The notes under the pieces were generated by a model. It did no database searches and was not told where the DNA came from. It saw only the letters and a list, made by a program, of their open reading frames with translations. A DNA stretch of 64,000 bases, from the NCBI RefSeq assembly GCF_028867965.1, contig NZ_JAPQNT010000001.1:496001-560000 (forward strand), in the 5' to 3' direction. Made by a program: the position numbers and the translations under genes. This DNA comes from Flavobacterium sp. SUN046 (lineage in GTDB: Bacteria; Bacteroidota; Bacteroidia; Flavobacteriales; Flavobacteriaceae). Of this stretch, positions 5,035 through 19,345 are shown one piece after another (position 1 is the first letter of the stretch; each line of letters starts with the position of its first letter).

Positions 5035-5052
5035 TAATTATCACAAATTTTT
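5021..5052. repeat. Dispersed repeat overlapping a gene start
   Basis: GACACAAATTTCACTAATTATCACAAATTTTT shares the core TTTCACnAATTATCACA with the end of wecB (48907-48923). It overlaps the first codons of the TPR gene. Confidence 0.5.
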
Positions 5053-5095
5053 ACATTGAAATTAAATTTCACTAACGTTTATAATCTATATTTCT

Positions 5096-6106
5096 TTATT
5101 CTAAAACAGAATAATCTCCAATACTAATACTGGTAAAATTTCCGTCAAAACTAGCATGATTTCCTATCATAGCGTTGTCTAGATTGGCGTTTTTGATGTG
5201 CGCATGGGTTTGAACTAAACTATTTTTAATTGTTGTATTGAAAACATGAGTTCCGTTGCCGAGTGAAACATTTGGTCCAACAACTGCATCAATCAAAACC
5301 ACATCTTTACCGATATAACATGGCGGAATAATAGTCGAATTTTCTAATTTCACATCATGATCAACTAAATGTTCGCCATCATTGTGTAAAAAACCTAGCA
5401 TTCTTGAATTGGTTTCAACCGTTACGTCTTTGTTGCCGCAATCCATCCATTCATCAACTTTTCCTGGTACAAATTTCATGCCTTTTGCCATCATTTGCTT
5501 AATTCCATCGTTTATTTGATATTCGCCACCATGAATAATATTGTTGTCTAACACCAATTGCAATTCATTTCTTAAAACGGAAACATCTTTAAAATAGTAT
5601 ATTCCGATAACGGCTAAATCGGAAACGAATTCTTTAGGTTTTTCGACCAATTCTATAATTTCATTATTTTCATTCAAATTGATTACACCAAAAGCTTCGG
5701 GTTGATCGACTTGTTTTACCCAAATTACAGAATCGGCGGTTTGATCTAAATCGAAATCGGCACGAATTAACGTGTCGGCATAAGCAATAACCGCTGGTCC
5801 AGACAAAGAATTTTTGGCACACATAATCGCATGACCTGTTCCTAAAGCTTTATTTTGGTAGTAAATTGTTCCTTTTGCACCCAACTTTTGAGCAATTGCA
5901 ATTAATTCTTCTTCTACTTTTTTGCCAAAACTTTCGTGAATGATAAAAGCAACTTCGTCAATTGGTTGGTTTAAAACTGTTGCAATATCTTCTACTAATC
6001 TATGTACGATCGGTTTTCCTGCAATTGGAATTAATGGTTTTGGTACTGTTAATGTATGCGGACGTAATCTTGAACCGCGTCCTGCCATTGGTACTATTAT
6101 TTTCAT
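5096..6106 (-). CDS. Sugar-1-phosphate nucleotidyltransferase
   Basis: The N-terminal domain carries the NTP-transferase signature MAGRGSRLRPHTLTVPKPL (residues 7-25), which binds the nucleotide and Mg2+. A central Rossmann-like domain (to about residue 225) has ADTLIRADFDL and VEKPKE motifs. The C-terminal third has hexapeptide-like beta-helix turns (HDVKLENSTIIPPCYIGKDV). The protein would make an NDP-sugar from NTP and a sugar 1-phosphate in the cytoplasm; which sugar and nucleotide cannot be told. At 336 residues it is shorter than GlmU and lacks its acetyltransferase extension. It lies downstream of the flippase and dut genes, suggesting a link to glycan synthesis. Confidence 0.8.
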   Translation of the reverse strand: MKIIVPMAGRGSRLRPHTLTVPKPLIPIAGKPIVHRLVEDIATVLNQPIDEVAFIIHESFGKKVEEELIAIAQKLGAKGTIYYQNKALGTGHAIMCAKNSLSGPAVIAYADTLIRADFDLDQTADSVIWVKQVDQPEAFGVINLNENNEIIELVEKPKEFVSDLAVIGIYYFKDVSVLRNELQLVLDNNIIHGGEYQINDGIKQMMAKGMKFVPGKVDEWMDCGNKDVTVETNSRMLGFLHNDGEHLVDHDVKLENSTIIPPCYIGKDVVLIDAVVGPNVSLGNGTHVFNTTIKNSLVQTHAHIKNANLDNAMIGNHASFDGNFTSISIGDYSVLE

Positions 6107-6123
6107 ATTATTGTTTTTATTTT

Positions 6124-6143
6124 AACCGCAAAGCTCGCAAAGA
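6124..6143. repeat. Short CGCAAAG repeat
   Basis: AACCGCAAAGCTCGCAAAGA holds two CGCAAAG units and matches a frequent flavobacterial intergenic repeat as I remember it. It lies in the 70-base gap between the nucleotidyltransferase gene and dut. Confidence 0.45.
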
Positions 6144-6176
6144 TTTTTGTATGTCAATTGATATTAATACTTATTA

Positions 6177-6611
6177 CTACTTTACACCAGTACTTCCAAA
6201 ACCGCCTTCGCCTCTTGACGTTTCTGATAATTCTTGAACTTCAATCCATTCGGCGCGTTCGTGTTTGGCAATGATTAGTTGAGCAATTCGTTCGCCGTTT
6301 TCAATCACAAAATCTTCATTGGATAAATTTACTAAAATTACTCCAATTTCGCCACGATAATCGGCATCGACTGTTCCTGGTGAATTTAAAACAGTAATTC
6401 CTTTTTTGAAAGCTAATCCGCTTCTTGGTCGAACTTGTGCTTCGTAACCAATTGGTAATTCGATGAAAAGTCCGGTTTTTACAAGTGTTCTTTCAAGTGA
6501 TTTTAACGTAATTGATTCTGAAATATTGGCGCGTAAATCCATGCCAGCAGAAGCTATAGTTTCGTAATTTGGTAATTCGTGTTGTGATTTATTTATTATT
6601 TTGATTTGCAT
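6177..6611 (-). CDS. dut: dUTP diphosphatase
   Basis: This 144-residue trimeric dUTPase converts dUTP to dUMP and pyrophosphate, which keeps uracil out of DNA and feeds dTMP synthesis. All five family motifs are present in order: AGMDLRA (23-29), RPRSGLA (62-68), [13 protein letters not shown] (79-91, with the catalytic Asp), GERIAQLI (106-113), and the C-terminal P-loop-like [10 protein letters not shown] (133-142). The ATG overlaps the stop of the upstream flippase gene by one base (TAATG), so the two are translationally linked. No oddities. Confidence 0.96.
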
Positions 6612-8077
6612 TATTTTGCTTTTCTTTTGATGATTCTTAGTAAAGTTTCTTTTTCGCTGTAATATATGAAATATAAAAATAGTGAAAGTAAAAGTATTTT
6701 TATCAAATAAGTTTCCCTAACATAAGGAACATAAAATGAAATCCCTGAGAATAAAATTGTGAGCCCAAGATAGCTGAAAATTTTATTAAAATCGTACGGA
6801 ATTGGATAGCTTTTTTGACCCATTTTATAGGATATTATCATCATGCTTCCATAAGCAGCAATGGTTGCAATTGCCGAACCATAATAACTCATTGTTGGAA
6901 TAAGAAGATAATTTAATGCTAGTGTAACCAATGCGCCAATTATGGAAATATACGCGCCAATATGTGTTTTATCAATTAATTTATACCATACCGATAAATT
7001 GGTGTAAATTCCTAGAAAGAAATTTGCTACAACTATAAGTGGAACTACTTGAATTGCATCCCAATATTTAGAATCAGGAACTAATGGATGTTTTAATAAA
7101 TCAATAAATGCAATTACAAACAAACAGATGAACGATCCAAAAATCACAAAATATTTGGTAATTGTTGCATACGTTTGTTGCGCGTTTTCATTGCTTGCGT
7201 GACTAAAGAAAAACGGCTCAATCCCGAGTGTATAAGCTGTTCTAAAAAGCACCATAAACATTCCGATTTTGTAACATGCAGAATAAGCTCCGATATCTGA
7301 TAATGGAACGTGCATCCAATCTAGAAAAATTTTATCAAAATGCTCATTTATGGCAAATGCAATTCCGGCTATTAGAATTGGAAGTCCATATTTCATCATT
7401 TTTTTCCACAGAATGACATCAAATTTCCAAGCTATCTTCAAATAATTTGGAAGTAATATCAATAAAGTAATCAAACTAGCTACAAGGTTGGAAACAAAAA
7501 TGTAACCAATTTGAAAGTTATCAAAATAAATGGTGCTTAAAAAACCATTGGGATTATTTGTAGCTATTTTGGGTAAAAAAGCTAGAAAAAAAACATTTAA
7601 CAATAAGTTTATAGTAACATTTGCCATCTTGATTACGGCATATTTCATGGGTTTTTTCTCGGCACGAAGCTTAGAAAATGGAATTATTGCCAGAGCATCT
7701 AAAGTTAAAATCCAAATGGTGTACGTGATGTATTCTACATTAATTTCAGACCAACTTGCTAATGTATTTCTGAACAATAATGACATTACTAAAAATCCTA
7801 AAGAAGACCAAAAAAGCGATACGGTACTTGTTGAAATAACATTTTTCTTATCGTCTTCAGAATTATAAAATCTAAAAAAAGATGTTTCCATTCCGTAAGA
7901 CAAAACAACATTGAAAAAAACCAAATAAGCAAAAATTACAGAAACTTCTCCCATTTTACTTTTGTCTGGCAAGTAACACACAAACAACGGATTTAGAATA
8001 AAGCTAATTATCCTTGGAAATACTGTTGCCAGTCCGTAAATTAAAGTTTGTTTAAAAAGATTTTTATATAAACTCAA
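6611..8077 (-). CDS. Polysaccharide biosynthesis flippase (MATE/Wzx-like)
   Basis: The product has about 12-14 predicted membrane helices and the start expected for flavobacterial oligosaccharide flippases ([20 protein letters not shown]). It would move lipid-linked sugars across the inner membrane. The frame opens with a TTG at 8101, but that codon is the end of a good -7 box (TATTTTTG, 8106-8099). I therefore place the start at the TTG at 8077, where the conserved family N-terminus begins. The gene overlaps dut by one base. It stands apart from the main polysaccharide cluster at 46-64 kb and may serve another glycan. Confidence 0.82.
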
Positions 8078-8098
8078 AGTAGCTTTTATTTTAAGCGA

Positions 8099-8106
8099 CA
8101 AAAATA
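8099..8106 (-). promoter_or_regulatory. -7 promoter box of the flippase-dut operon
   Basis: On the minus strand the sequence reads TATTTTTG, fitting TAnnTTTG. The -33 triplet 19 bases upstream reads TTT instead of TTG. It predicts transcription starting just ahead of the TTG at 8077. Confidence 0.5.
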
Positions 8107-8119
8107 AGGTTTTCTTTGT

Positions 8120-8557
8120 TTATGAAAATCCATTTTCATCAATAGTTTTGATAAAGTGAAATCCTCGTGGAACGTAACCTTGATTGTAGTAAAAACGATG
8201 CGCTTCAAAGTTTCCTGTAAAAGCGTCTAAAACGATACAAGTACAATTTAATTCTTTGGCTTTTTCATCAATAAATTGGGTTAATATTTTTCCAATTCCT
8301 TTTTTTCTGTACTCTGGATGTACTATAAAATTGTCAATTTCTATGTATTTTCCGGTCCATAATTTTGTTCCAAACCAAAATCCAGTCATTCCAATGCAAA
8401 TTTCATCTTCAAATAGTGCAACTTGCTTGTAGTTTTTAGGAATCATATCAATCAAAAAAGATTCATATTTTTCAATTGTCATGTTTGGATATAGAAATTT
8501 GATAGTTTCTAATTGCGACAGCATTTCTTGAATTGTAGTAAGTTCTTTAAGTTTCAT
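8120..8557 (-). CDS. GNAT family N-acetyltransferase
   Basis: The 145-residue product fits a single GNAT domain, which transfers an acyl group from acyl-CoA to an amine. Motif A, which binds the CoA pyrophosphate, is seen as HPEYRKKGIGKILTQFI (residues 77-93, pattern R/QxxGxG/A). It is followed by the typical FTGNFEAHRFYYNQGYVPRG near the C-terminus. The substrate is unknown. The gene stands alone, after the AAA+ operon's terminator and upstream of the flippase gene on the same strand. Confidence 0.85.
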   Translation of the reverse strand: MKLKELTTIQEMLSQLETIKFLYPNMTIEKYESFLIDMIPKNYKQVALFEDEICIGMTGFWFGTKLWTGKYIEIDNFIVHPEYRKKGIGKILTQFIDEKAKELNCTCIVLDAFTGNFEAHRFYYNQGYVPRGFHFIKTIDENGFS

Positions 8558-8585
8558 TATTTGAATTTATCGTTATAAAATTAAC

Positions 8586-8614
8586 AAAAAAGCGTCAACT
8601 AAATTTGACTCGCT
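8586..8614 (-). terminator. Terminator of the ABC/AAA+ operon
   Basis: On the minus strand AGCG(AG)TCAA / TTGACGCT forms a stem with a two-base bulge, followed by TTTTTTG. It lies about 20 bases after the stop of the AAA+ gene. Confidence 0.65.
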
Positions 8615-8634
8615 CATTAATTTTTATCTGTTTT

Positions 8635-10134
8635 TTACTCCAAATAAACTTGCTTAACTGTTTCTGTTGGTTCGGGAATATCTCCTTCGGTGATCGTCTT
8701 TAATGCTTTTTTAGATATTTTTTTTATCTTAACAATCCTATTTGCTTGATTTTGAACGCATTTTTCAAATATATTTCTGGCAACTCTAGCATTTCCAAAG
8801 CTATCGTCTTTCTTTTGATAAAGTAATTCAAAAGTATCACTTATTTTTTCTAATGCTTCTGGAGTTAAAATAAAATCAGATTTTTGGCAAAATGATTCGA
8901 AGATTTGTATTAATTGTGATGGCGTAAAATGCTCGAAAAAGAAATAGCGGTTAAATCTAGAACGCAATCCAGGATTGGAAGCTATAAAAAGCTGCATTGG
9001 TTCATTATATCCAGCGACTACAACGGCTAAATCGTCACGAAAATCTTCCATTCGTTTTAGTAACGTATTTACAGCTTCGGCACCATAATCATTTCCTAAA
9101 CCATTTTGATTTAGTCCGTATGCTTCGTCAATAAACAAAACGCCACCTTTACTTTCTTCTACTACTTTGTTGACTTTAGTTGCTGTTTGACCAACATATC
9201 CAGCAATCATTCCTTCACGATCGGTTTCATAAAGTTGACCTTTAGACAAATAACCTAAATGTTTGAATATTCTTCCTAAAAGTCGTGCTACCGTTGTTTT
9301 TCCTGTTCCTGGTGGACCGATAAAAACGGTATGCAACATAATTTCAATGTTTTTTAAACCTTGTAGTTCTCGTTTTTTTTGAACTTCTAGTAGATTTATA
9401 ATTTCATTTACGTCTTGTTTTACCTTATCTAAACCAACTAATTGATGCAATTCTTCAAGCACTTTTTCTAATGTATCTTCTTCAGAAATGGCTGTTATAT
9501 TTGAATTAGCAACTGCTTTTTTAGATTCTAAAATTTGCTTTGTTGCTTCTTTATCAAAACTCAAATTGAAAGATAAATGAGCAAAGTTTTCATATGAATT
9601 TAGAATTTTTTGGAGGTTTGGATTTTTAGTTTCTGACAAAGCAGTTAATAAAAAACTCTGGTTTTGCTTATCATTTATGGAAGTAATTCTGTTTTGTGCT
9701 CTAATGTTTTCAAGATTAGAACAGAAATTTGAATCGGTGATCAATTTGTTTAATGTGGTAATTGCTTTTTCATCGGCAAAATGATTGTTCTTCAAAGCAT
9801 CAAAATAATAGGCCAAAACAAATCTTGATTTTTCGGTTTCTATTGAGCTATTCTGATTGTAAATTGAAATAATATCCGATAAGAAAAACTCTTGGGCTTT
9901 GTATTGATTTCCGTTAGAAGTATTTGAATTAACTAATGAATTGACCTTGTTTACGAATTCAGAACTGTTATTTAATTCGTTACAAAGATTTATAATCGTG
10001 GTAGTTTCTAATTTAAGTTTGGAAACAAAAATTGCATCAAAATAAACTTTACTCGGATTGAATTCTTCTTCAATATAATTTTTTATTGATAAAAAAGAAT
10101 CTTCTAAAAAGGATATTGGATTGGTTTTTTTCAA
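8635..10134 (-). CDS. CbbX/CfxQ-type AAA+ ATPase with a novel N-terminal helical domain
   Basis: Residues 225-499 form an AAA+ module of the CbbX/CfxQ (and EccA) type: the lead-in LVGLDKVKQDV (232-242), Walker A GPPGTGKT (273-280), Walker B VLFIDEA (332-338), and the arginine-finger region PGLRSRFNRYFFF (388-400). Such ATPases remodel protein complexes in the cytoplasm. Residues 1-220 are helical and unlike CbbX; the stretch near 100-135 recalls TerB-like helical domains, but weakly. The start is a TTG 10 bases after the ABC ATPase stop; no in-frame ATG is near. It is the last gene of the operon before a terminator, so its client is probably an operon-encoded coiled-coil protein or the transporter. 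Confidence 0.8.
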   Translation of the reverse strand: MKKTNPISFLEDSFLSIKNYIEEEFNPSKVYFDAIFVSKLKLETTTIINLCNELNNSSEFVNKVNSLVNSNTSNGNQYKAQEFFLSDIISIYNQNSSIETEKSRFVLAYYFDALKNNHFADEKAITTLNKLITDSNFCSNLENIRAQNRITSINDKQNQSFLLTALSETKNPNLQKILNSYENFAHLSFNLSFDKEATKQILESKKAVANSNITAISEEDTLEKVLEELHQLVGLDKVKQDVNEIINLLEVQKKRELQGLKNIEIMLHTVFIGPPGTGKTTVARLLGRIFKHLGYLSKGQLYETDREGMIAGYVGQTATKVNKVVEESKGGVLFIDEAYGLNQNGLGNDYGAEAVNTLLKRMEDFRDDLAVVVAGYNEPMQLFIASNPGLRSRFNRYFFFEHFTPSQLIQIFESFCQKSDFILTPEALEKISDTFELLYQKKDDSFGNARVARNIFEKCVQNQANRIVKIKKISKKALKTITEGDIPEPTETVKQVYLE

Positions 10135-10144
10135 GGTTTTTACT

Positions 10145-10975
10145 TTACGAATTCATCATTTGATGCACAATCTGCTTTGCAATTTTATCGTGATCTTCAC
10201 AATAAGCTTTCCAGCAAATTCCCATTTCTCTCAAGTCATATTTAGCAACAATTGAACCATAATTTTGCAATTTTCCGTTTACGGTTGGATAACCAATTAC
10301 ATAAATTGATTGCGCTAATTCTAATGCTAATTCGATATCGTGTGTTGAAAAAATAACAGTATTATAATCGTTAGAAGTGCTTAATAACTCAAATGATTTT
10401 TTAACTTCTTCAATATTTCCGACATCTAAACCCGAAAATGGCTCGTCTAAAACAATCAATTTATCTGATGATAAAAGTTGTTCAATAATAGCTGTTCGCT
10501 GTCTTTGTCCGCCAGAAAGTTCGTTTGGATATTTATCTTTACAATTATCTAATCCCCATTCATTAATGTATTGTGCGATTTTTTTATTTTTTTCTGTTTC
10601 TGACAGCTCTGATTTTCTTAAAGCAAATTTGAATGTTTGTTCAACGGTTTTATGTCTGAATAACGTGTATTTTTGATCTACAAATCCAATTTCGCCTTCA
10701 ACAACTGGTTTAGCGGCGTCAATTTCTTTGCTGTCGAAATTTTTGATTAAAATTTTACCTGTGTTAGGTTGAATTAATCCAGTTAATGCTTTAAAAAAGG
10801 TTGATTTTCCTCTCCCAGACCTTCCAACAACGGCAATTACTTGTCCGGTATTTTCTTTGTTTGGTCGCACAACATTCTTTTCAACAAGTGAAATGTCTTT
10901 GATAATGGTTACATCATCATAAACAACACTCAGATTTTCTACGTATAGAAGCGTTTCTTTAAATTCAAATTCCAT
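10145..10975 (-). CDS. ABC transporter ATP-binding protein
   Basis: This 276-residue nucleotide-binding subunit has Walker A GRSGRGKST (51-59), Q-loop Gln at 101, signature LSGGQRQR (153-160), Walker B LIVLDEPFSGLD (173-184) and the H-loop STHDIE. It resembles NitT/TauT-family ATPases and pairs with the permease two bases upstream. Two parts are unusual for that family: a polar insert (about residues 34-46) before Walker A, and a C-terminal tail (about 235-276) ending in a predicted helix with two cysteines. The tail could be a regulatory or docking element; that is inference. Confidence 0.9.
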   Translation of the reverse strand: MEFEFKETLLYVENLSVVYDDVTIIKDISLVEKNVVRPNKENTGQVIAVVGRSGRGKSTFFKALTGLIQPNTGKILIKNFDSKEIDAAKPVVEGEIGFVDQKYTLFRHKTVEQTFKFALRKSELSETEKNKKIAQYINEWGLDNCKDKYPNELSGGQRQRTAIIEQLLSSDKLIVLDEPFSGLDVGNIEEVKKSFELLSTSNDYNTVIFSTHDIELALELAQSIYVIGYPTVNGKLQNYGSIVAKYDLREMGICWKAYCEDHDKIAKQIVHQMMNS

Positions 10976-10977
10976 AG

Positions 10978-11748
10978 TTATATTTTTGAATATCTAAAAA
11001 TTGATTTTCTTAGGAAATTGATAAACCAATCTAATCCTAAACCAATAAGTAAAATGATGATTTGTAAAGCAATTATTCGTCCGTGGTTCATAAATTTATC
11101 AGAGTTTTTTATCAAAAATCCTAAACCTCCAGAAGCAACAACGATAGATTCTACAGTAACTAACATCATCCAGGTTATCGCTAAATTTTGACGAATAACG
11201 TCAATTACATAATCGATTCTTCCTAAAACAATTACCTGCCAAAGCACTTCAAATCGATTGCATTTTAAGGTTTTGGCATGATCAAATTCTTCTTGTGGAA
11301 TATCCTTGACAACTCCAATTAATGAAGTGGTTAGATACGTTGTTAAGAAAATTACTAAAATCCAAACTTGCATATTTCTAGCTTCGTGAACAATTAAAGT
11401 AATGTAAAATGACAATCCTGTAAAAGGTAGAAATCGCAACTTAGTTACAAATTCAGATACTGGTTTTAATAACGGAATTGGCCAAGAATAAGCAAATAAA
11501 AGTGCGATAATAATAGCTAAGAAAATAGAAAGAAAACACAGTTTTAACGATTGAAAAATATGTACCACCAATCCTTCATTATACAAAGCCGAGAAACCTT
11601 GAAAAACTTGACTTGGTGAAGGAAACAAATGTTTTTCTCCCATAGTTCCTAGAAACCACAAGGTGAACAAAACAACTATCCAAGCAATCAAAATTATCGT
11701 TTTTTGAGTTTTGGATATTTTCTCGAAAGGCATTAATAGTTTTATCAT
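10978..11748 (-). CDS. ABC transporter permease (NitT/TauT-like)
   Basis: The 256-residue protein has about six membrane helices and the EAA-loop region typical of importer permeases (FDHAKTLKCNRFEVLWQVI, then ESIVVASGGLGFLI). In the family this loop docks the ATPase. Neighbours are the ATPase (2-base gap) and, upstream, the OmpA-fused binding protein. Homologues import nitrate, taurine or similar anions, but the ligand here is unknown. A hairpin terminator separates it from the upstream gene, so it is probably expressed at a lower level than the binding protein. Confidence 0.88.
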   Translation of the reverse strand: MIKLLMPFEKISKTQKTIILIAWIVVLFTLWFLGTMGEKHLFPSPSQVFQGFSALYNEGLVVHIFQSLKLCFLSIFLAIIIALLFAYSWPIPLLKPVSEFVTKLRFLPFTGLSFYITLIVHEARNMQVWILVIFLTTYLTTSLIGVVKDIPQEEFDHAKTLKCNRFEVLWQVIVLGRIDYVIDVIRQNLAITWMMLVTVESIVVASGGLGFLIKNSDKFMNHGRIIALQIIILLIGLGLDWFINFLRKSIFRYSKI

Positions 11749-11753
11749 AATAT

Positions 11754-11794
11754 TAAAAAAATAAGGCTTTCAAAATTGAAGTATTGAAAGCCTT
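11754..11794 (-). terminator. Intra-operon terminator/attenuator after the binding-protein gene
   Basis: An 11-bp perfect stem AAGGCTTTCAA/TTGAAAGCCTT (11763-11773 and 11784-11794) is followed on the minus strand by ATTTTTTTAAT. It lies between the OmpA-fused binding protein and the permease, so partial read-through would give more binding protein than transporter. Confidence 0.75.
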
Positions 11795-11803
11795 GTTAAG
11801 TTT

Positions 11804-13618
11804 TTATTTTAAGAAAGTTACAACAACTCTTCTGTTTTGCGCTTTTCCAGAAACTGAATTATTATCTCCAACTGGTTCATTTTGCCCTTTACCGTCAATT
11901 AATTGAAAACGATTAGCAGGAATTCCTTTTTGTTTTAAATAATCAACAACTGCTTGCGCTCTGTTTTTAGATAACGATAAATTAGAATCTGGATTTCCAA
12001 CATTATCAGTATGACCAACTATTGTTAATTTAGAGTTCTCAGCTTGAATAAGCAAGTTATAAATTTTCTCTAAATCTTTAGACGAAGAACTTTGCACATC
12101 GGCACTACCTGAACTGAAATTAATTTTCCATTCTCCAGAAGCCATAACCTCGGTTGCAGTTGCACTATAATCGGCTTTATCAGCTTTTGATGATTCGATA
12201 TCGTTAATGTTTTTAAGATAAAATAAATTTACCGCTTCATCATAAGAAGATACTTTTCCAACATTTTCATTAAACCCAAACGGATTCAATTCGGTTAAAT
12301 AAGTTCCAACTTGATTGTAAACTGCTTTGTAACGATTTACACCATCTGAAAGTCCAAAATATTGCATTGCATCGGCATAATTAAAAACTTTAGAACCACC
12401 CATATTATAAGTCAAACCATTTTTAGTGCCTTGTTGTCCTTTGAACATTTTGTACCAATATTCAGCATTTTCTATTTGATAAGTTGCAGCTACAGCTTCT
12501 GAAGCTCTAACTTTCCAATCTTCATAATTTTTCATTTGGTTGGAAGCCGTCAATGCCGATTTTAAAACATTCGTAACAATCTCAGGATTTTTAGCTGCCC
12601 ATTCTTTAACGCCAATTATAACTGTAGGCATTTGATTATTAAACTCTTTAGTAGAAACAATGTCAACAAAACCTGTTAATTTATCGAAAACTGTTTTATC
12701 TCCTGGTGTCCAAGTTGCACAACCGTCAATTTTTTTTGTTACTGATTTTCCAGTTAATTTTCCGTTAGAAACTTCTTTCAAAGAAACTGTAAATCCAGCT
12801 GTTTGCGATTTGATTAATTCCTCTGCCGATTTCATATAATCATCATCTTGCGATGGATAAATGTTTACGGCATCTGCGTCGTAAGTTGAAGGATCTGGAT
12901 TTACTTTTAATCCGTTAGCAAAACAATAATTTACGGTTGTAACCCAGTCTCCATCTCCTAAAACTGCCGAAATAACTGCACCTTTCATTGATTTAGGATT
13001 TGATTTCCATTCTGGTGGACCAATTAATTTATCTTCACCATAACTCATCCCAACTGCTCCAAAAACTTGCAAATGGTATTTGTCTTTTCCGTAAGAAGCG
13101 TCTAATTCCTTCTGAACTGAACTTATATAAAACGGAGCACCATCACCCATAATCATTACCATTCCAGCACTTTTATCAGATGTTGGAAAATTAGTTCCGC
13201 CGTCAAATTCTTTAATAAATTTCATTTGCATATTACGCAATTCAGACAGCCAATCTTGACGAATGATTTCAACATTTAAACCGTTTTTTTCCATTAATGA
13301 ACCTTTGGTAGTTTTTGGTCCACCATTAGAAACAATAATTCCAGATTCAGCATTCCAAGCATAACCAGCAATTCTCACTAAAGGTTTAGAGGAAACTTCA
13401 GACGAAACTTCAGTACTTGGCAATGCAATTTTTTCTGCATTTGTGGTATTATTAACATCGGTTGTGTTAAGTTCGATTCCGTTTAATTGTTTAGAAACTG
13501 CTGTTTTTAATCCTGGAGAAATGAAATAAATTGCGCCCAAAACGGCTCCGATTCCACCAATGACAATAAGTAATTCTGAAAAAGTTGTTAGTTTAGTTGT
13601 TCTTAAAATTTTTCCCAT
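11804..13618 (-). CDS. Solute-binding protein fused to an OmpA peptidoglycan-binding domain
   Basis: The 604-residue product starts with a membrane helix (about 12-34) without an obvious cleavage site, so it is probably anchored in the inner membrane. Residues 78-450 resemble a type 2 periplasmic binding protein (start PLVRIAGYAWNAESGIIVSN). Residues 494-604 form an OmpA-like domain with the peptidoglycan-contact positions kept: HTD (536-538), NRAQAV (552-557) and NRRVVV (595-600). The protein would link the inner membrane, a ligand and the cell wall. It is upstream of an ABC permease and ATPase, so it is probably their substrate-capture subunit. The ligand is unknown. Fusions of this kind are annotated in databases as phosphate-type binding/OmpA proteins, a label without functional proof as far as I know. 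Confidence 0.82.
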   Translation of the reverse strand: MGKILRTTKLTTFSELLIVIGGIGAVLGAIYFISPGLKTAVSKQLNGIELNTTDVNNTTNAEKIALPSTEVSSEVSSKPLVRIAGYAWNAESGIIVSNGGPKTTKGSLMEKNGLNVEIIRQDWLSELRNMQMKFIKEFDGGTNFPTSDKSAGMVMIMGDGAPFYISSVQKELDASYGKDKYHLQVFGAVGMSYGEDKLIGPPEWKSNPKSMKGAVISAVLGDGDWVTTVNYCFANGLKVNPDPSTYDADAVNIYPSQDDDYMKSAEELIKSQTAGFTVSLKEVSNGKLTGKSVTKKIDGCATWTPGDKTVFDKLTGFVDIVSTKEFNNQMPTVIIGVKEWAAKNPEIVTNVLKSALTASNQMKNYEDWKVRASEAVAATYQIENAEYWYKMFKGQQGTKNGLTYNMGGSKVFNYADAMQYFGLSDGVNRYKAVYNQVGTYLTELNPFGFNENVGKVSSYDEAVNLFYLKNINDIESSKADKADYSATATEVMASGEWKINFSSGSADVQSSSSKDLEKIYNLLIQAENSKLTIVGHTDNVGNPDSNLSLSKNRAQAVVDYLKQKGIPANRFQLIDGKGQNEPVGDNNSVSGKAQNRRVVVTFLK

Positions 13619-13647
13619 TTTTATTTTAAATTTGTTTTATAATTCAG

Positions 13648-14772
13648 TTAAAAAATATCGCCAAAACCGCCGCTGTTAAGCTTATCGTCTTTAGACATTT
13701 TGTAATTTGGATTTGTATATTTTGATGAATCTGGAATAGTGTTGTCACCAGTTTTAATTTCATCGGCAAGCGAATCTAATCTTGAATACAATTCGTCGTT
13801 ATCTACAGAATATTTAGAAGTTAATGCATCTATATCGATTAAGTTTTCAGATGTTCTTGCAATATCTTGAGCAATTGTAGATGTTACTACATCAAGAGCA
13901 TATTCTAATTCCCAATCTTTAGTAAACATCATTGCACTTTTAGCAGATTCTGTAGCTTGTTTGGCATTTTTAGCAAATTCGTATTCCTTCTTTAACATTA
14001 CAATTGTTGTGTCAAAATCGGCAATTTTAATATCGATTGCCGTTCCTGCTAAAGTCAATTTTCTATCCATTTTACCTAAAACGTTGGCACGAACTCCATA
14101 TTTTTGAATAAAACTTTTGCTTTGATCGTATTGATTTGCAATTCGTTGAGAATCGCTTAATTTTCTAGCTAATTCACTTTGTAACGCTACATATTCATCG
14201 GTATCTTTGGCTGCAATTCCGTTTTGTCGAACCATTTCATCCATTGCTGATTTTAATTTTTCGGATTGACGTTGTAAACTCAAAACATCATCTTGAAAAC
14301 TTTTGGCTTCTTTTTCAGATTTAGTCGCTTCCATTTCCATTTCTGTTTTTAAACCTTTTAGCTTTGCCTTGGTACTTTTAAAAACCTCTTGATTCTTAAT
14401 CATTTTCTGTTTTTGCTCTTCCAATTCTGCAAAAGGATTGCTCTGAATCAATGCTTTATGTAAATTTTTAGTTGCAAAACGTAGTCCTTTCATAATTACA
14501 GGAAACATCATCACTAAAAATATCAAGAATACTCCAGTTGCTGAAAGTGCAATTGCTTGACCTAACATTGTAAATAGTGGAGGAATAATGTAAGTCCAAG
14601 TTAGGTATCCACCAACTCCCAATAGTGCTGCTGCTAATATCCAAAAAAGTGATTTTTCTCCTTTTTTAAGTGTATTTGAACTTAAAGCGATTTCGCCTTT
14701 AGATTCGTCAAAGTGTTTTAATATGGGTAATTCTAAAAGTGTGCTTTTTTCTTGTTCGTATCTGCTCTCCAT
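13648..14772 (-). CDS. Membrane protein with two N-terminal helices and a long coiled coil
   Basis: I do not recognise a named family. Two hydrophobic helices lie near residues 42-62 and 68-93, preceded by a short N-terminal region. A highly charged coiled coil runs over about 115-300 (for example KLKGLKTEMEMEATKSEKEA). The C-terminus is polar and ends in a glycine-rich stretch (LNSGGFGDIF). The topology suggests both ends are in the cytoplasm. The long helical hairpin recalls PspA-like or TelA-like proteins in general form only. It follows a coiled-coil gene after four bases and precedes the OmpA-fused binding protein by 29 bases, so the three are probably co-transcribed. Confidence 0.7.
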   Translation of the reverse strand: MESRYEQEKSTLLELPILKHFDESKGEIALSSNTLKKGEKSLFWILAAALLGVGGYLTWTYIIPPLFTMLGQAIALSATGVFLIFLVMMFPVIMKGLRFATKNLHKALIQSNPFAELEEQKQKMIKNQEVFKSTKAKLKGLKTEMEMEATKSEKEAKSFQDDVLSLQRQSEKLKSAMDEMVRQNGIAAKDTDEYVALQSELARKLSDSQRIANQYDQSKSFIQKYGVRANVLGKMDRKLTLAGTAIDIKIADFDTTIVMLKKEYEFAKNAKQATESAKSAMMFTKDWELEYALDVVTSTIAQDIARTSENLIDIDALTSKYSVDNDELYSRLDSLADEIKTGDNTIPDSSKYTNPNYKMSKDDKLNSGGFGDIF

Positions 14773-14776
14773 TATA

Positions 14777-15442
14777 TTATAAATATTGGTTTATCCCGGT
14801 TACTATTACATTTATTGAATCTAACATTTTCTTTTTGGCTAAATCATTGGCTTCAATTTTAAGTTGAAACTCATTGAATTGTGCACTATTATTTGCATCT
14901 ACTTTTTCTAGTTCGGCTTTGCTTTTGGATAATTCGGCTTGAAGTTGAGCAATTTTAGATTCTAAATCACTAATGTTTTTAGTTAATGTTTCTTTTTGTT
15001 TTAAAATAGAATCGCCTAAATCTTTTCTCTTAGCTTTACCGGTAGCATCATATTTTGAATAAACATTCTGAATTTCAGAAATATAATAGTTGCTTTTTTC
15101 TAATAAAAAGGCTTTAGTAAGTTCTGGATTTATGGTTTTACCCATTGTAAATGCCATTTGATAACTTTGAGGATTGGTAGCTCCAACAGAAATTACAGAT
15201 TTGTACATTTCAAAAAAATCAAATCCCGATTGGTTCAACGATTCAAATCCTTTTTCATAAACAGCAAAAACTTCATTTAAAAACGGATTATTATTTCCAG
15301 CATCAGCATTAGGTTGAAATGTTCCTGTTGTATCTGGAAATTTATTTATTGTACTTGAAACATCATTGCTTTTAACCTCTTGCTTAGCCGAATCTTCTTC
15401 GTTAATAAAAAGGCTTTTCCAATTAAAACTATTTGTACTCAT
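14777..15442 (-). CDS. Cytoplasmic coiled-coil protein, first gene of the ABC/AAA+ operon
   Basis: This 221-residue protein is not recognised. It has no signal peptide or membrane helix. Residues 1-50 are polar and probably disordered, 51-135 are helical (FLNEVFAVYEKGFESLNQSG), and 150-205 form a coiled coil (ISDLESKIAQLQAELSKSKA). It is the first gene of the operon, with about 175 bases of non-coding DNA upstream and no clear TAnnTTTG box. Its pairing with the coiled-coil membrane protein four bases downstream suggests a complex of the two. Confidence 0.65.
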   Translation of the reverse strand: MSTNSFNWKSLFINEEDSAKQEVKSNDVSSTINKFPDTTGTFQPNADAGNNNPFLNEVFAVYEKGFESLNQSGFDFFEMYKSVISVGATNPQSYQMAFTMGKTINPELTKAFLLEKSNYYISEIQNVYSKYDATGKAKRKDLGDSILKQKETLTKNISDLESKIAQLQAELSKSKAELEKVDANNSAQFNEFQLKIEANDLAKKKMLDSINVIVTGINQYL

Positions 15443-15560
15443 TGGTTTATTATTTGGTTTACTTCAATTATACGTAGTAACCGACAAAAAGTTACTAATT
15501 AATTTATAAAAATAAGAAAATTAGTCTTAAAATGCTTTTTTATGGTGACTTTTTAGCAAA

Positions 15561-15590
15561 CAAAAAAAGAGTCTACTTTCGTTGACTCTT
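15561..15590 (-). terminator. Terminator of the arylsulfotransferase gene (AGAGTC-type)
   Basis: On the minus strand AAGAGTC..AC-GAAA-GT..GACTCTT forms a stem with a GAAA loop, followed by TTTTTTTG. It is nearly identical (two differences) to the terminator after atpG at 26487-26517. Confidence 0.8.
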
Positions 15591-15617
15591 ATATAATCTA
15601 TTTTACTTAAAATATAT

Positions 15618-17267
15618 CTATTTATTAATTATCACTTTAAATGATTTTGAATTAGTGGCGTTAGAAATTTTTACAAAATAAATTCCGTTATAAATTGCAT
15701 CTGTTTCAATTATACTCAAAGTGCTTCCTTGGAGAATTTTTGATGATTTTACTACTTTTCCTAACTCATCAATCAAATCAACATTTAAATCAGTTTCAAT
15801 TAAATCAGTTTGAATTGTAATAAAATTAGAAGCTGGATTTGGATAAATAGTAATGTTAATTTTGTCAATATCAAATTCATTTGAATTTAAAATCAAATTA
15901 CAAGAAGCCGAAACAGTGTTAGAACTTTCAATTGTGTTTCCAGCTGTTAAAGTATGTCCTGCAAATCCTGAATAAGTTGTTGGATAATATGTACATCGAA
16001 AAACATTACTCATTGTTGGCGTTGTTCCTTGACTTATTATTCCTGTTGTATTAACTGGATTTGTGTATTTCCAAACTTGAGTTCCATTGGTTGTAACTTC
16101 TGTAAAAATGCCGCTCGGGCCATTGCATAAAAGCACATTACCGTTAGATAATTGTTGTGCGCCGGAAATGTTCATAGCGTAATAATTATTCGGATTTCCG
16201 TAATTGTAATTCCATGAAGTTGTAGTTGGTAAATAGGGTAGTGTAGCAGTATAGTTGTTTCCGTTTACTGGTGGATTTATTATTTCTACTGTTGAATAAT
16301 TTCCGCCAGTTCTATTCAATCCGTTATTAAAAATCATAATTTGGTTTTCAAAAGGTAATCCAGGTTCTATCCATCTAACATTGTGCTGACCAAATAATTT
16401 TTTATCGGTAGTTGTTCCGTTATTATATGCCGCAGGATTTCCCCAACGATAGATAAAATCGCCACCATTTCCAGAATTTCCACCAGAATGACTTGCTGCT
16501 TGTGCCGTTGTTGTGCTATGATCGATAATCCAAATTTCATTCAAATTGTGTGAACTGACTACGATTTGATCTAATGTTGGATTGTAATCAATTGCATTCA
16601 TGTGAATCCAATCGGCTGTAGTTGCAGTTGCACCATAATTGATATTTAATAATTTAGGATTTGAAGACACGACTCCAAAATTAGACTTACTTGCGTCATA
16701 ATCTTGAATTAAATGATCCCATAAATGCCATTCCCAAACAATTGTTCCGCCAGATGTTCCAGAAGGTTGCACTTCTAAAATCTGTTCTGACCAAAGTGTT
16801 GTTGGTACTAAAGTTGGGTTTCTTCCATTTGCAATAGCTTGTGTGTTGGTTTTTAATTCCCAAGAAATTATCAAAACATTTCCGTTTGGTAAAGCTTTTA
16901 CGTCGTGATGTTGGCATTTTGTAGCGTCCGAAACGGTATAACTCCAAGTTACATTTCCGTTCCAATCAATTTTTTGAACAATTCCGCCTGTTCCTCCGGC
17001 CGTAAATGTTGCATTGTTGGTATTTCCGGTTCTTAACAAAGTTCCATCTGATAAAAGATAACACGATTGTCCTGTTTTGTATGTACTTGGCCAAGTTTTT
17101 ACTTGTTTACCACATTTATTGATAAGATACGTTGTTGTGCTTGTGTTTGGTGCAAACAATACATAACCATCATCTAAACTTCCTGCATCATGTTGTTGTA
17201 AACCAACAGTTTGAGAATAATTTAAAATTGAAAAAAAACAAATGGATAATAGTAGAAGTTTCTTCAT
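15618..17267 (-). CDS. Arylsulfotransferase-like protein with T9SS sorting domain
   Basis: A signal peptide (LLLSICFFSILNYSQ) precedes a beta-propeller-like region of the arylsulfotransferase family (about residues 25-450), with motifs such as HHDVKALPNGNVLIISWE and FGQHNVRWIEPG. In this family a histidine takes the sulfate from a phenolic ester and passes it to another phenol, without PAPS. A type IX sorting domain ends the protein (about 471-549, INITIYPNPASNFITIQ), so it is secreted or surface-attached. Its sorting domain is about 78% identical by eye to that of the adjacent YHYH-type protein. A terminator separates it from that gene, so it may have its own promoter. The substrate is unknown. 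Confidence 0.8.
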   Translation of the reverse strand: MKKLLLLSICFFSILNYSQTVGLQQHDAGSLDDGYVLFAPNTSTTTYLINKCGKQVKTWPSTYKTGQSCYLLSDGTLLRTGNTNNATFTAGGTGGIVQKIDWNGNVTWSYTVSDATKCQHHDVKALPNGNVLIISWELKTNTQAIANGRNPTLVPTTLWSEQILEVQPSGTSGGTIVWEWHLWDHLIQDYDASKSNFGVVSSNPKLLNINYGATATTADWIHMNAIDYNPTLDQIVVSSHNLNEIWIIDHSTTTAQAASHSGGNSGNGGDFIYRWGNPAAYNNGTTTDKKLFGQHNVRWIEPGLPFENQIMIFNNGLNRTGGNYSTVEIINPPVNGNNYTATLPYLPTTTSWNYNYGNPNNYYAMNISGAQQLSNGNVLLCNGPSGIFTEVTTNGTQVWKYTNPVNTTGIISQGTTPTMSNVFRCTYYPTTYSGFAGHTLTAGNTIESSNTVSASCNLILNSNEFDIDKINITIYPNPASNFITIQTDLIETDLNVDLIDELGKVVKSSKILQGSTLSIIETDAIYNGIYFVKISNATNSKSFKVIINK

Positions 17268-17297
17268 TGAATATTTGGTTTCTGTTAAGATTTATTT

Positions 17298-17337
17298 AAA
17301 AACTAAAGGTTTAATTCAAAAGTAGAATTAAACCTTT
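17298..17337 (-). terminator. Terminator of the metal-response operon (after the YHYH gene)
   Basis: A perfect 13-bp stem AAAGGTTTAATTC/GAATTAAACCTTT (17305-17317 and 17325-17337) with a 7-nt loop is followed on the minus strand by TAGTTTTTAAA. Confidence 0.8.
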
Positions 17338-17360
17338 TATACCATAAAACCTAAAATTTA

Positions 17361-18707
17361 TTATTTATTAATAATTACTTTTTTGGTAATAGAATCTTTA
17401 CTATTTGATAATCTAATAAAATAAACGCCATTATAGATATCATCTGTTTCTATAACTGATAGTGTGCTTCCTTGAAGGATTTTACTTGATTTTACAACTT
17501 TTCCTAATTCATCAATTAAATCTACATTCATATCAGATTCAACTAAATCTGTTTGAATAGCAATAAAATTAGAAGCTGGATTTGGATAAATAGTGATTTT
17601 TGACTCGTTTAAATTAAATGTTTCATTAGCTAAAACATAAGTAGTAGTTCCTGTTGGAACAGTTGTTACGGTTGTTGCAACTTTATTTCCATAAAATGTT
17701 GGTCCAACAGCATAAGGATAAGCCGAATTATGATTAGCGTCTACAGTTGTAAAATAACAATAAATCCCGGCAGGATATTCAGGAGTTACACAAAATCTTC
17801 CGTTGTGTATATCTAAATAAGATGCGTCAGTTGGATGAGCAATAAATTCATAATCTTCTCTAAAATAGCCTAATGGGTATATGGTACTCACCGCAGGTCC
17901 ATCTAAAACATCGGTTCCGTCTGCCCAAACTGTTCTTGTAGTAATATTTCTGTATTGGTAACTCGATTTCATTCTAACAATACCACCTGTTCCGTCAACA
18001 TTTGCATAAGCATAAGCACCATAAATAGGAAAACCATCGTAAGCAAAACCAAGTAAAGGTGAATGTTGGGTTGAATTGATAACATATAAACCATCAGAAG
18101 GATAAGTTGAGCAAACTGTAGAAATAACCGTCAAATCTAAACCAAAAGCACTCGGATTTTGATGATGATGATAATTTCCTCCAGCTGGATGCGCTTTAGA
18201 ACAGTCAAAACCTCCTCGTTCTCCAACAACAGCATCTCTATTCCATTTTCCATCTCCTGTACAACTCATAATTGGTCCACCACATATTGTACTAGTAGAA
18301 TTTTTCCAAGAAACACCATCACGATAATCAAACAGAGCAACGCCATTGATAAACAAACCAATATTTCCACCAGTTGTGGCAGTAGCAGTTCCAGTATTTT
18401 GAGTAGGAGTTAACGGAAATTTAAAAATTTTATTTTGAGCTGTTGCTAATGTTGGATTTCCATCTAAAAATGGTCCTGTAATATATGCTGGAATTCCGGT
18501 TGCTGAAACATATACATTTGTAGCATCATATTGAACTGTTTGAACATTGGCTTGAACTGCATCTACAATTGGTGTTGAATTTCCAGAAACATAATGGCGA
18601 CCTACAATTCCAGTTGTGTTTCGTAACCATCCAGTAATTGCAGGATTGGTTTGTGAAAACAACAAACAATTTGTATATAAAAGTAGTAATAAAGTAAATT
18701 TTTTCAT
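17361..18707 (-). CDS. YHYH-type domain protein with T9SS sorting domain
   Basis: A signal peptide (LLLLYTNCLLFSQ) is followed by a region of the YHYH type (about residues 90-330), with GNIGLFINGVALFDYRDG, a histidine cluster in GGNYHHHQNPSAFG, and LLGFAYDGFPIYGAY. The naming motif YHYH reads YHHH here, and the histidines could bind metal. A T9SS sorting domain follows (about 370-448, KITIYPNPASNFIAIQ). The gene is the last member of the operon that starts with the ECF sigma factor and lies 18 bases after the redoxin gene. The function of YHYH proteins is not established; the copper link comes from the context. Confidence 0.75.
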   Translation of the reverse strand: MKKFTLLLLLYTNCLLFSQTNPAITGWLRNTTGIVGRHYVSGNSTPIVDAVQANVQTVQYDATNVYVSATGIPAYITGPFLDGNPTLATAQNKIFKFPLTPTQNTGTATATTGGNIGLFINGVALFDYRDGVSWKNSTSTICGGPIMSCTGDGKWNRDAVVGERGGFDCSKAHPAGGNYHHHQNPSAFGLDLTVISTVCSTYPSDGLYVINSTQHSPLLGFAYDGFPIYGAYAYANVDGTGGIVRMKSSYQYRNITTRTVWADGTDVLDGPAVSTIYPLGYFREDYEFIAHPTDASYLDIHNGRFCVTPEYPAGIYCYFTTVDANHNSAYPYAVGPTFYGNKVATTVTTVPTGTTTYVLANETFNLNESKITIYPNPASNFIAIQTDLVESDMNVDLIDELGKVVKSSKILQGSTLSVIETDDIYNGVYFIRLSNSKDSITKKVIINK

Positions 18708-18725
18708 TCTTTTTATTTTAGTTAG

Positions 18726-19343
18726 TTAATCCATTTTTTGTTTTTCGCCTCTTATAAAAATTCTACACCCAAACGATTCAGATTTTGGTGTTGTAACTTG
18801 TTTTCCTTTTAATAATTCGTTAACAGCATTTGCTATATAATTATGTTCGGCTTTTTCTGGTTCAGATGCATTATCATTGATTGCTCCTTGGTATTTTATG
18901 TCATAATTACCTAATTTATTTTTCCAAATAAGGAACGCTTGTGGTGTGTTTTTAGCCTTAACTTTTCTTACAATAATTTGATTTTTATCTTGTAAATACG
19001 GAAAGTTAAATTTTTCTTTTTTTACTTTTAATTGCATTTTCTTAAAAGATTCTTCTGCATAAGCTAACGTATCCATTGAATTTATTGCTATTAACGGAAC
19101 ACCTAATTTTTTATATTTTGCATTTAATGCGTTTAAAGTATTGGTATATAATTTTGCCATCGGACATTTATTACAGGTAAAAACAAGTATAAATCCTTTA
19201 GCTTTTTTATAATCTGATAAGGCAACTAACTTATTTGTAGAAGCGTTTTTTAATTTAAAATTAGACAATCCTTTTTCTTTATCAAGAATCGTAAAACTGG
19301 AAATCAATAGCGCCAAAATAAATAAAAGAAGCGTTTTTCTCAT
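18726..19343 (-). CDS. Periplasmic redoxin/thioredoxin-fold protein
   Basis: The 205-residue product has an N-terminal signal or anchor helix (LLLFILALLISSFTIL) and a thioredoxin fold of the peroxiredoxin-like type: LVFTCNKCPMAKLY near residues 53-66 with a CxxC pair, then INSMDTLAYAEESFKKM and the cis-proline region KNTPQAFLIW. It would act in the periplasm as a thiol oxidoreductase or metal-handling protein. It follows the multicopper oxidase by two bases, which suggests a role in copper insertion or thiol repair around copper. The C-terminus has another cysteine in ESFGCRIFIRG. Confidence 0.8.
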   Translation of the reverse strand: MRKTLLLFILALLISSFTILDKEKGLSNFKLKNASTNKLVALSDYKKAKGFILVFTCNKCPMAKLYTNTLNALNAKYKKLGVPLIAINSMDTLAYAEESFKKMQLKVKKEKFNFPYLQDKNQIIVRKVKAKNTPQAFLIWKNKLGNYDIKYQGAINDNASEPEKAEHNYIANAVNELLKGKQVTTPKSESFGCRIFIRGEKQKMD

Positions 19344-19345
19344 GA

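What the first reader, a model, noticed from the sequence alone, without database searches (positions are those of the whole stretch)
8635..15442. Envelope-spanning ABC/AAA+ operon of unknown function
Six same-strand genes combine two coiled-coil proteins (one with two membrane helices), a solute-binding protein fused to an OmpA peptidoglycan-binding domain and tethered by an N-terminal helix, a NitT/TauT-like permease and ATPase, and a CbbX-type AAA+ ATPase with a new N-terminal domain. The parts are recognisable but their combination is not one of the named transport systems I know. It suggests an importer or sensor fixed between inner membrane and cell wall whose assembly is remodelled by an AAA+ ATPase. 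Spacings (4, 29, 55, 2 and 10 bases) support one transcription unit.
Basis: partly seen in the sequence, partly recalled or inferred. Interest (0 to 1): 0.78.

Follow-up and report, generated by a model that had tools for sequence, protein, structure and literature searches.

The report
Wall-tethered ABC transporter with PspA-like partner
A conserved set of bacterial genes appears to couple a nutrient-type pump that is fixed to the cell wall with a membrane-anchored relative of the membrane-repair protein PspA, and in one genus also with a protein-pulling motor; a like combination has been noted in print, and I found no experiment on it.

Summary
In detail: six minus-strand genes at 8635-15442 with gaps of 4, 29, 55, 2 and 10 bases. 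The domain calls are right, but the unit divides in two. A five-gene core (coiled coil 1, two-TM coiled coil 2, SBP-OmpA, permease, ABC ATPase) lies in order on one strand in 70 of 84 related loci; contig ends cut 12 of the other 14. The CbbX-class AAA+ gene was seen beside it only in the window's genus: the same 12 of 150 genomes as the SBP, 0 of 84 other loci. Coiled coil 2 is best read as a membrane-anchored PspA/ESCRT-III-type protein: profile score 54.9, controls at most 29.5; one relative scores 35.8 or 33.5 bits, by search, against Pfam's cut-off of 33.9; fold comparison is only suggestive. Ravi et al. 2024 (PMC11237479, passages read) already describe operons of PspA/Snf7 proteins with a TM segment, AAA+, ABC ATPase, permease and PBPB-OmpA protein. 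So: a new variant (CbbX-type motor) of a published, apparently untested association; likely a wall-tethered importer organised by a PspA-like scaffold.

The parts
14777..15442 (-). coiled coil 1 (cc1), 221 aa: low-confidence N-terminal stretch, three short helices, long C-terminal helical hairpin; no TM segment
   Evidence: model m813c2809b7bd, pLDDT 78.3, pTM 0.62, residues 1-6 and 14-34 under 50; no PspA signal above its reversed control (28.7 against 28.7)
13648..14772 (-). coiled coil 2 (cc2), 374 aa: two TM helices, then PspA/ESCRT-III-like helices and a conserved C-terminal tail
   Evidence: TM 45-63 and 76-94; helices 39-109, 113-184, 191-283, 287-320, 326-340; hhalign to PspA score 54.9, controls 29.5 or less; PspA_IM30 matches in relatives, none in this protein itself
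11804..13618 (-). solute-binding-like domain with N-terminal TM segment (16-34) and C-terminal OmpA domain (501-596), 604 aa
   Evidence: PF00691 68.0 bits; TM; weak NMT1 and NMT1_2 matches (E 0.015) in one relative; discrete family
10978..11748 (-). NitT/TauT-type permease, 256 aa
   Evidence: PF00528 15.9 bits, below the cut-off of 26.4, but 30.4 and 29.5 in relatives; NCBIfam SaoP 1.8e-14, TauC 2.1e-12, NtrB 2.7e-10, far below their cut-offs; solved relatives CmpB and nitrate permease
10145..10975 (-). ABC ATPase, 276 aa, motifs intact (GRSGRGKS, LSGGQ, LIVLDEP, STHD)
   Evidence: PF00005 102.8 bits; motifs
8635..10134 (-). CbbX/SpoVK-class AAA+ ATPase, 499 aa, with a fast-evolving N-terminal region without a Pfam or NCBIfam family of its own; TTG start in this ORF call
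   Evidence: CbbX structures E 3.1e-51 over 214-486; motifs; residues 36-210 are 27-52% identical, residues 221-400 78-82%, to 13 orthologues; the phage family phrog_4339, function unknown, aligns from residue 103 to 492 (E 5.2e-32)
15562..15590 (-). hairpin followed by T run between the upstream 549-aa gene and cc1, probably that gene's terminator
   Evidence: coordinates counted by hand on its output

Best explanation
The core is an ABC importer of the NitT/TauT kind whose binding protein is not free in the periplasm: it is held in the inner membrane by an N-terminal helix and to the cell wall by an OmpA domain (domains shown, tethering inferred). cc2 is a PspA/ESCRT-III-type protein in which two TM helices stand where PspA has its membrane-binding helix alpha-0 (homology supported, not proven); with cc1 it most likely forms a scaffold on the cytoplasmic face that clusters the importer or stabilises the membrane around it (inferred from co-conservation). 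In one genus a CbbX-class AAA+ motor has joined the operon and probably pulls on a scaffold subunit to disassemble it, as Vps4 does to ESCRT-III (inferred). The substrate is unknown; the many invariant residues of the binding domain argue for one specific ligand.
For: Core in order on one strand in 70 of 84 loci, 12 of the other 14 cut by contig ends. cc2-PspA profile score 54.9 against 27.5 and 29.5 (reversed) and at most 25.4 in 40 block shuffles; the aligned part pairs the NPF or DP before cc2's first long helix with PspA's EDP. PspA_IM30 falls on the operon's cc2 in all three genomes of one family, 35.8, 33.1 and 29.6 bits with a cut-off of 33.9, and matches 12 of 60 cc2 relatives at E 0.01 or better. 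Helix order of the model fits PspA (its order recalled); Vipp1 6zvr is the first Foldseek row, prob 0.95, and Vipp1 entries make 8 of the 50 rows shown. ATPase and AAA+ motifs and the OmpA motifs HTDN and N..LS..RA are intact. AAA+ orthologue in the same 12 of 150 genomes as the SBP. About 90 columns of the binding domain are invariant in 7 sequences of three families. A Band_7 protein lies beside the core in L070, and Band-7 next to pspA is reported in Bacteroidota (PMC9239133, passages).
Against: The window's own cc2 has no PspA match and a same-genus-only profile gives no signal (score 27.5), so homology rests on relatives 15-24% identical to it. The one relative over Pfam's cut-off in the genome search (35.8) is just under it when its ORF is scanned (33.5). 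No Foldseek match is significant (first E 0.054), and VIA-align ranks other helical hairpins (Smc5/6, PI3K iSH2) at the top, with no Vipp1 in the 50 entries shown. The model is mediocre (pLDDT 70.7, pTM 0.38). L080 has SBP, permease and ABC but no cc1 or cc2, and L125 only cc2 and SBP. cc2's C-terminal motif is as conserved where no AAA+ gene was seen, so it is no motor-specific tag. There is no ligand or transport evidence, and no metabolic gene recurs at a constant place beside the core.
Confidence: 0.5

Rival explanations
1. Envelope strain sensor rather than nutrient importer: the SBP-OmpA protein, fixed in both the inner membrane and the wall, reports a small molecule or the wall-membrane distance, and the ABC parts gate assembly of the PspA-like protein for membrane repair.
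For: Two anchors by sequence; PspA-like partner; no metabolic gene recurs at a constant place beside the core; the second locus of Parachryseolinea silvisoli (L125) keeps only cc2 and SBP; NtrC-type response regulators lie downstream of the core in L055-L057.
Against: ABC ATPase motifs intact, and permease and ATPase are kept with the rest in 70 of 84 loci, which a pure sensor would not need; the binding domain keeps many invariant residues.
Confidence: 0.25
2. Ordinary importer with two unrelated coiled-coil accessory subunits; the PspA likeness of cc2 is a coiled-coil effect.
For: VIA-align favours other hairpins; no PspA match in the window's own cc2.
Against: Reversed and heptad-block-shuffled controls score about half or less; Pfam's PspA model is matched by more of the 60 cc2 members (12) than any other Pfam-A model (next 5) at E 0.01.
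Confidence: 0.17
3. The AAA+ gene is only a neighbour and serves another complex (compatible with any of the readings of the core).
For: Found at 0 of 84 core loci outside the genus; another ORF stands between ABC and AAA+ in 4 of 15 same-genus carriers.
Against: Same 12 of 150 genomes as the SBP; the other 138 have no orthologue, though two of them have a different CbbX-class match at 46 and 41% identity. Same strand and downstream position in the 14 complete operons, the window included.
Confidence: 0.25

Closest known systems
PspA/Snf7-TM - AAA+ - ABC ATPase - permease - PBPB-OmpA operons of Ravi et al. 2024 (PMC11237479, section 18; outline and passages seen)
   Same: Same gene content at the level of domains, and the same proposed link between membrane remodelling and solute transport.
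   Different: Their main text does not name CbbX or SpoVK; it speaks of Vps4-like AAA+ with Snf7 and of a protein with two AAA+ domains with PspA. Here the AAA+ is CbbX-class and was not seen beside the core outside one genus. Their example OGG56892.1 was not compared and their supplement was not read.
PspA / Vipp1 (IM30), bacterial ESCRT-III
   Same: Profile similarity around the first long helix, order of helices, N/DP before that helix.
   Different: Two TM helices in place of helix alpha-0; no Pfam match in the window's own protein.
NitT/TauT ABC importers (NrtB, CmpB, TauC, SaoP)
   Same: Permease sequence family; ATPase type; weak NMT1 likeness of the binding domain in one relative.
   Different: Binding protein fused to OmpA and membrane-anchored; two extra helical subunits.
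CbbX / SpoVK / EccA AAA+ ATPases
   Same: AAA+ module and lid (residues 214-486), GYVG pore-loop motif (role recalled).
   Different: Different N-terminal region; 213.8, 258.8 and 233.1 bits against cut-offs of 459.25, 422.95 and 466.65, so none of the named equivalogs.

Membership tests
PspA/IM30 (bacterial ESCRT-III) for cc2 | Match to the PspA_IM30 profile at the curated cut-off | tested here: inconclusive
   Window protein: no match. Relatives: G628 35.8 bits in the genome search (cut-off 33.9) but 33.5 when its ORF is scanned; G318 33.1; G411 29.6.
PspA/IM30 (bacterial ESCRT-III) for cc2 | Profile-profile similarity above coiled-coil controls | tested here: met
   54.9 against 27.5 and 29.5 (reversed) and a maximum of 25.4 in 40 block shuffles; depends on including relatives (same-genus-only profile 27.5).
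PspA/IM30 (bacterial ESCRT-III) for cc2 | Long alpha1 - alpha2/3 hairpin followed by alpha4 and alpha5 (recalled) | tested here: inconclusive
   Helices 113-184, 191-283, 287-320, 326-340 in a model of pLDDT 70.7; first Foldseek row Vipp1 but E 0.054; VIA-align top rows are other hairpins.
PspA/IM30 (bacterial ESCRT-III) for cc2 | N-terminal amphipathic helix alpha0 of classical PspA/Vipp1 | tested here: not met
   Two TM segments stand there.
PspA/IM30 (bacterial ESCRT-III) for cc2 | Polymerises on membranes | not testable with these tools
   -
NitT/TauT ABC importer | Permease of the family | tested here: met
   SaoP, TauC, NtrB profiles E 1.8e-14 to 2.7e-10, below the equivalog cut-offs; CmpB and nitrate permease structures E 2.6e-8 and 5.1e-6.
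NitT/TauT ABC importer | NMT1-type binding domain | tested here: inconclusive
   E 0.015 in one relative, L055; no PDB sequence matches the A3 profile up to E 1.
OmpA-type peptidoglycan-binding domain | OmpA profile and the D/R motifs (role recalled) | tested here: met
   68.0 bits, cut-off 27.2; HTDN at 536, N..LS..RA at 546.
CbbX/SpoVK-class AAA+ | AAA+ module and motifs of the class | tested here: met
   CbbX structures E 3.1e-51; motifs.
CbbX, SpoVK, EccA equivalogs | Score at the equivalog cut-off | tested here: not met
   213.8 of 459.25, 258.8 of 422.95, 233.1 of 466.65 bits.
PSP-ABC operons of Ravi et al. 2024 | PspA/Snf7 with TM, AAA+, ABC ATPase, permease, PBPB-OmpA in one operon | tested here: met
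   Domain content matches the text, with cc2 as the PspA/Snf7 part only as far as goes; sequence relation to OGG56892.1 not tested.

The most novel reading that the evidence does not exclude
A CbbX-class AAA+ motor, of the class that includes the Rubisco activase CbbX, serves as the Vps4-equivalent of a membrane-anchored bacterial ESCRT-III scaffold that corrals a cell-wall-tethered ABC importer: an ESCRT-like machine that organises transport rather than fission, with a motor recruited independently of Vps4.
Probability: 0.25. Interest if true: 0.75.

Novelty: new variant of a known kind. Interest (0 to 1): 0.5.

Why it matters
Ravi et al. write that it is unknown how PspA homologues without an associated AAA ATPase regulate their assembly. 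Here related cores occur with and without a linked AAA+ gene, in cultured soil bacteria such as Chitinophaga and, in one genus, at a chromosomal site that is empty in other species; so that question, and the link between PspA-type scaffolds and transport, could be tested directly by deletion.

Tried and rejected
Phage defence: PADLOC matches are partial matches in the AAA+, ABC and OmpA parts and one weak match to a short stretch of cc2 (17.6 bits). Phage origin: no PHROG for cc1 or cc2 (SBP, permease and ATPase were not sent). Plasmid carriage of the SBP (query L098): 291 plasmid records matched, 0 covering at least 80% of the query; the 40 rows shown match only its C-terminal part, from residue 436 on, which holds the OmpA domain. 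RNA element: none at gathering thresholds in 4000-20000. cc1 as a second PspA: not supported (28.7 against 28.7 reversed); its Foldseek list has no significant match and is led by a pore-forming toxin subunit at E 0.052. Sigma-70-type promoter scan: 36 found, 35.8 expected. C-terminal tail of cc2 as an AAA+ tag: the ending [YF]xx[LI][LIMF] is in 75 of 80 relatives whose loci show no AAA+ gene of this kind, and the other five have H at its first place. A first cc2-PspA comparison (score 36.4) used a PspA set spoiled by wrong-strand ORFs; redone. VIA-align listed no Vipp1 among its 50 entries.

Not possible: the protein database search; a structure of the SBP or of the AAA+ N-terminal region (both jobs went to cc1 and cc2); other phyla (one genome-contig scan, 80 of its 250 relatives returned); the supplements of Ravi et al.
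Full report
What is there. The window lies in a 3.37-Mb assembly. No tool names its genus; that it is a large genus of Bacteroidota, probably Flavobacterium, is my inference. A hairpin with a T run lies upstream of cc1. Downstream lie genes that read as a GNAT acetyltransferase, a flippase, a dUTPase and a nucleotidyltransferase (my reading, no family search).

Distribution in the genus. The SBP domain is present in 12 of 150 same-genus genomes, the own one included; the best matches of the others are OmpA-type matches, with a gap from E 3e-293 to 6e-21. One of the 12 (G248) is partial, on a 5.6-kb contig. The AAA+ orthologue (E 1.3e-98 or better) is in the same 12; two of the other 138 have a different CbbX-class match over the ATPase part, 46 and 41% identical (which lists 34 of its 150 rows). 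Three more carriers came from a phylum sample. Of the 14 carriers fetched, 13 hold all six genes in order; the 14th is the contig fragment. In 4 of 15 carriers, the window included, an ORF stands between ATPase and AAA+: a PhyH-family protein in L049, ORFs of the same length in L050 and L053 that I did not scan, and a 183-aa ORF without a Pfam match (best E 0.4) in L040. cc2 was found in 1 of 100 genomes of different genera of the family, the own one.

One site. Genes that read as ATP synthase subunits b, delta, alpha and gamma (my reading) lie upstream of the operon in 12 of 15 carriers, and the flippase-dut-nucleotidyltransferase run lies downstream in 11 of 15; both flanks are seen in 9 (L040-L048). 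The window has only the second, and two carriers lie at contig ends. Of 13 single-contig non-carriers that I chose among the 138, 10 have both flanks close together without the operon, with up to four other genes between; in 3 the ATP synthase flank is not there. This fits repeated loss, or gain by exchange, at one site.

Distribution in the phylum. 8 of 395 sampled genomes have the SBP at E 1e-40 or better: four of the genus with the own one, one of a second family, three of a third; a profile of the SBP domain alone finds the same 8 at E 1e-10, so this is a discrete family. The second family is Chitinophagaceae: the contig has the length of, and the match is identical to, a record of that name (L132). 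A scan of named genomes found 250 relatives, of which the best 80 were returned; by title most are Chitinophagaceae, some Cytophagales. In 84 loci (these 80 and four from the sample; L132 and L054 are the same contig), tblastn finds cc1, cc2, SBP, permease and ATPase in order on one strand in 70. Twelve of the other 14 are cut by contig ends. L080 lacks cc1 and cc2; L125, a second locus of Parachryseolinea silvisoli beside the full L108, has only cc2 and SBP. None of the 84 has a match to the window's AAA+ at 1e-6 within the stretch held; I did not search the rest of those genomes for one. An earlier count by ORFs gave 63 of 84, because overlapping ORFs hid some genes. Families found in 6 or more of these loci were confined to related loci or lay at varying places (my reading).

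cc2 is PspA-like. Pfam finds no PspA match in the window's own cc2, but PspA_IM30 matches 12 of the 60 aligned members at 0.01 or better; the next family, PriC, matches 5. In three genomes of the third family, PspA_IM30 matches fall on the operon's cc2: 35.8, 33.1 and 29.6 bits in the genome search, cut-off 33.9; scanned as ORFs, the first gives 33.5 and the third 29.0. The own genome has no PspA match at all, while another carrier, G330, has an ordinary PspA elsewhere. An alignment of 68 cc2 proteins from all lineages against 31 PspA proteins scores 54.9 (probability 90%); reversing either side gives 27.5 and 29.5, and 40 shuffles of seven-column blocks give at most 25.4. The matched part is PspA's EDP and first helix, 72 columns. 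Narrower sets score less: 50.9 with the third family first and the window left out, 38.9 without both, 27.5 for the genus alone. The AlphaFold2 model has one long membrane stretch, a hairpin of two very long helices and two shorter ones, the order that I recall for PspA. Foldseek ranks a Vipp1 chain first and has Vipp1 in 8 of the 50 rows shown, but nothing is significant; VIA-align puts Smc5/6 and PI3K hairpins on top and shows no Vipp1. I hold PspA/ESCRT-III kinship of cc2 to be likely, about 0.75, not proven.

Tails. After a variable linker, cc2 ends in [YF]xx[LI][LIMF] (with up to two more residues) in 75 of 80 relatives, with H for the first residue in the other five, and in GGFGDIF in the eight same-genus members aligned. 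A flexible linker with a short conserved end recalls ESCRT-III proteins (from memory), but as no AAA+ gene of this kind lies beside these cores its partner is more likely a core protein.

cc1. The model shows a low-confidence N-terminal stretch, three short helices and a long hairpin. It has no PspA signal above control.

SBP-OmpA. The OmpA domain is certain, its motifs are present. The binding domain has no Pfam match in the window at E 1; one relative has weak NMT1 and NMT1_2 matches, and no PDB sequence matches its profile up to E 1.

AAA+. The module is CbbX-class with intact motifs, but well below the cut-offs of the named equivalogs. The N-terminal region is 27-52% identical to orthologues whose ATPase core is 78-82% identical, as one might expect of a binding region that changes fast; the phage family phrog_4339, function unknown, covers part of it.

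Literature. Ravi et al. 2024 (PMC11237479; outline and passages seen) describe operons with PspA and Snf7 homologues with a TM segment, an AAA+ ATPase, an ABC ATPase, a permease and a PBPB-OmpA protein, and propose a link between membrane remodelling and solute transport. They also mention, in Bacteroidetes, a third PspA-like coiled-coil protein beside PspA and Snf7. Their main text does not hold the words CbbX or SpoVK. No paper of the library holds both CbbX and PspA, and theirs is the only one holding four of PBPB, OmpA, PspA, permease and membrane remodeling. Further searches (titles and starts of abstracts seen, one search lists 20 of 99) showed me no experimental study of such an operon; most subscription papers are not in the library.

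Verdict. Real, conserved, and a new variant of an association already in print.

Noticed in passing
L191-L203 against L040-L053 and window 6611-15442: In the genus the operon tends to occupy one chromosomal site, between ATP-synthase-like genes and a flippase-dut-nucleotidyltransferase run; 10 of 13 chosen non-carriers have these flanks close together without it.
   Followed up: yes
L125 and L108 (Parachryseolinea silvisoli): One genome has a full core (L108) and a second locus with only cc2 and SBP (L125), which hints that cc2 and SBP are the closest partners.
   Followed up: partly
L070:13775-15718: A Band_7 (SPFH) protein of 647 aa is the next ORF downstream of the core; a similar-looking ORF follows the core in L067.
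   Followed up: partly
L055:12545-13993, L056:4055-5419, L057:13006-14370: NtrC-type response regulators (receiver, sigma-54 activator, Fis HTH) lie downstream of the core on its strand in three genomes of one family; whether they regulate it is unknown.
   Followed up: no
L049:11572-12303: A PhyH-family gene sits between the ABC ATPase and the AAA+ gene; ORFs of the same length stand there in L050 and L053.
   Followed up: no
window 15618-21058: Upstream of the operon lies a run of secreted-looking proteins on the same strand, two of them with a similar T9SS-like C-terminal stretch, and a multicopper-oxidase-like protein (my reading of the translations).
   Followed up: no
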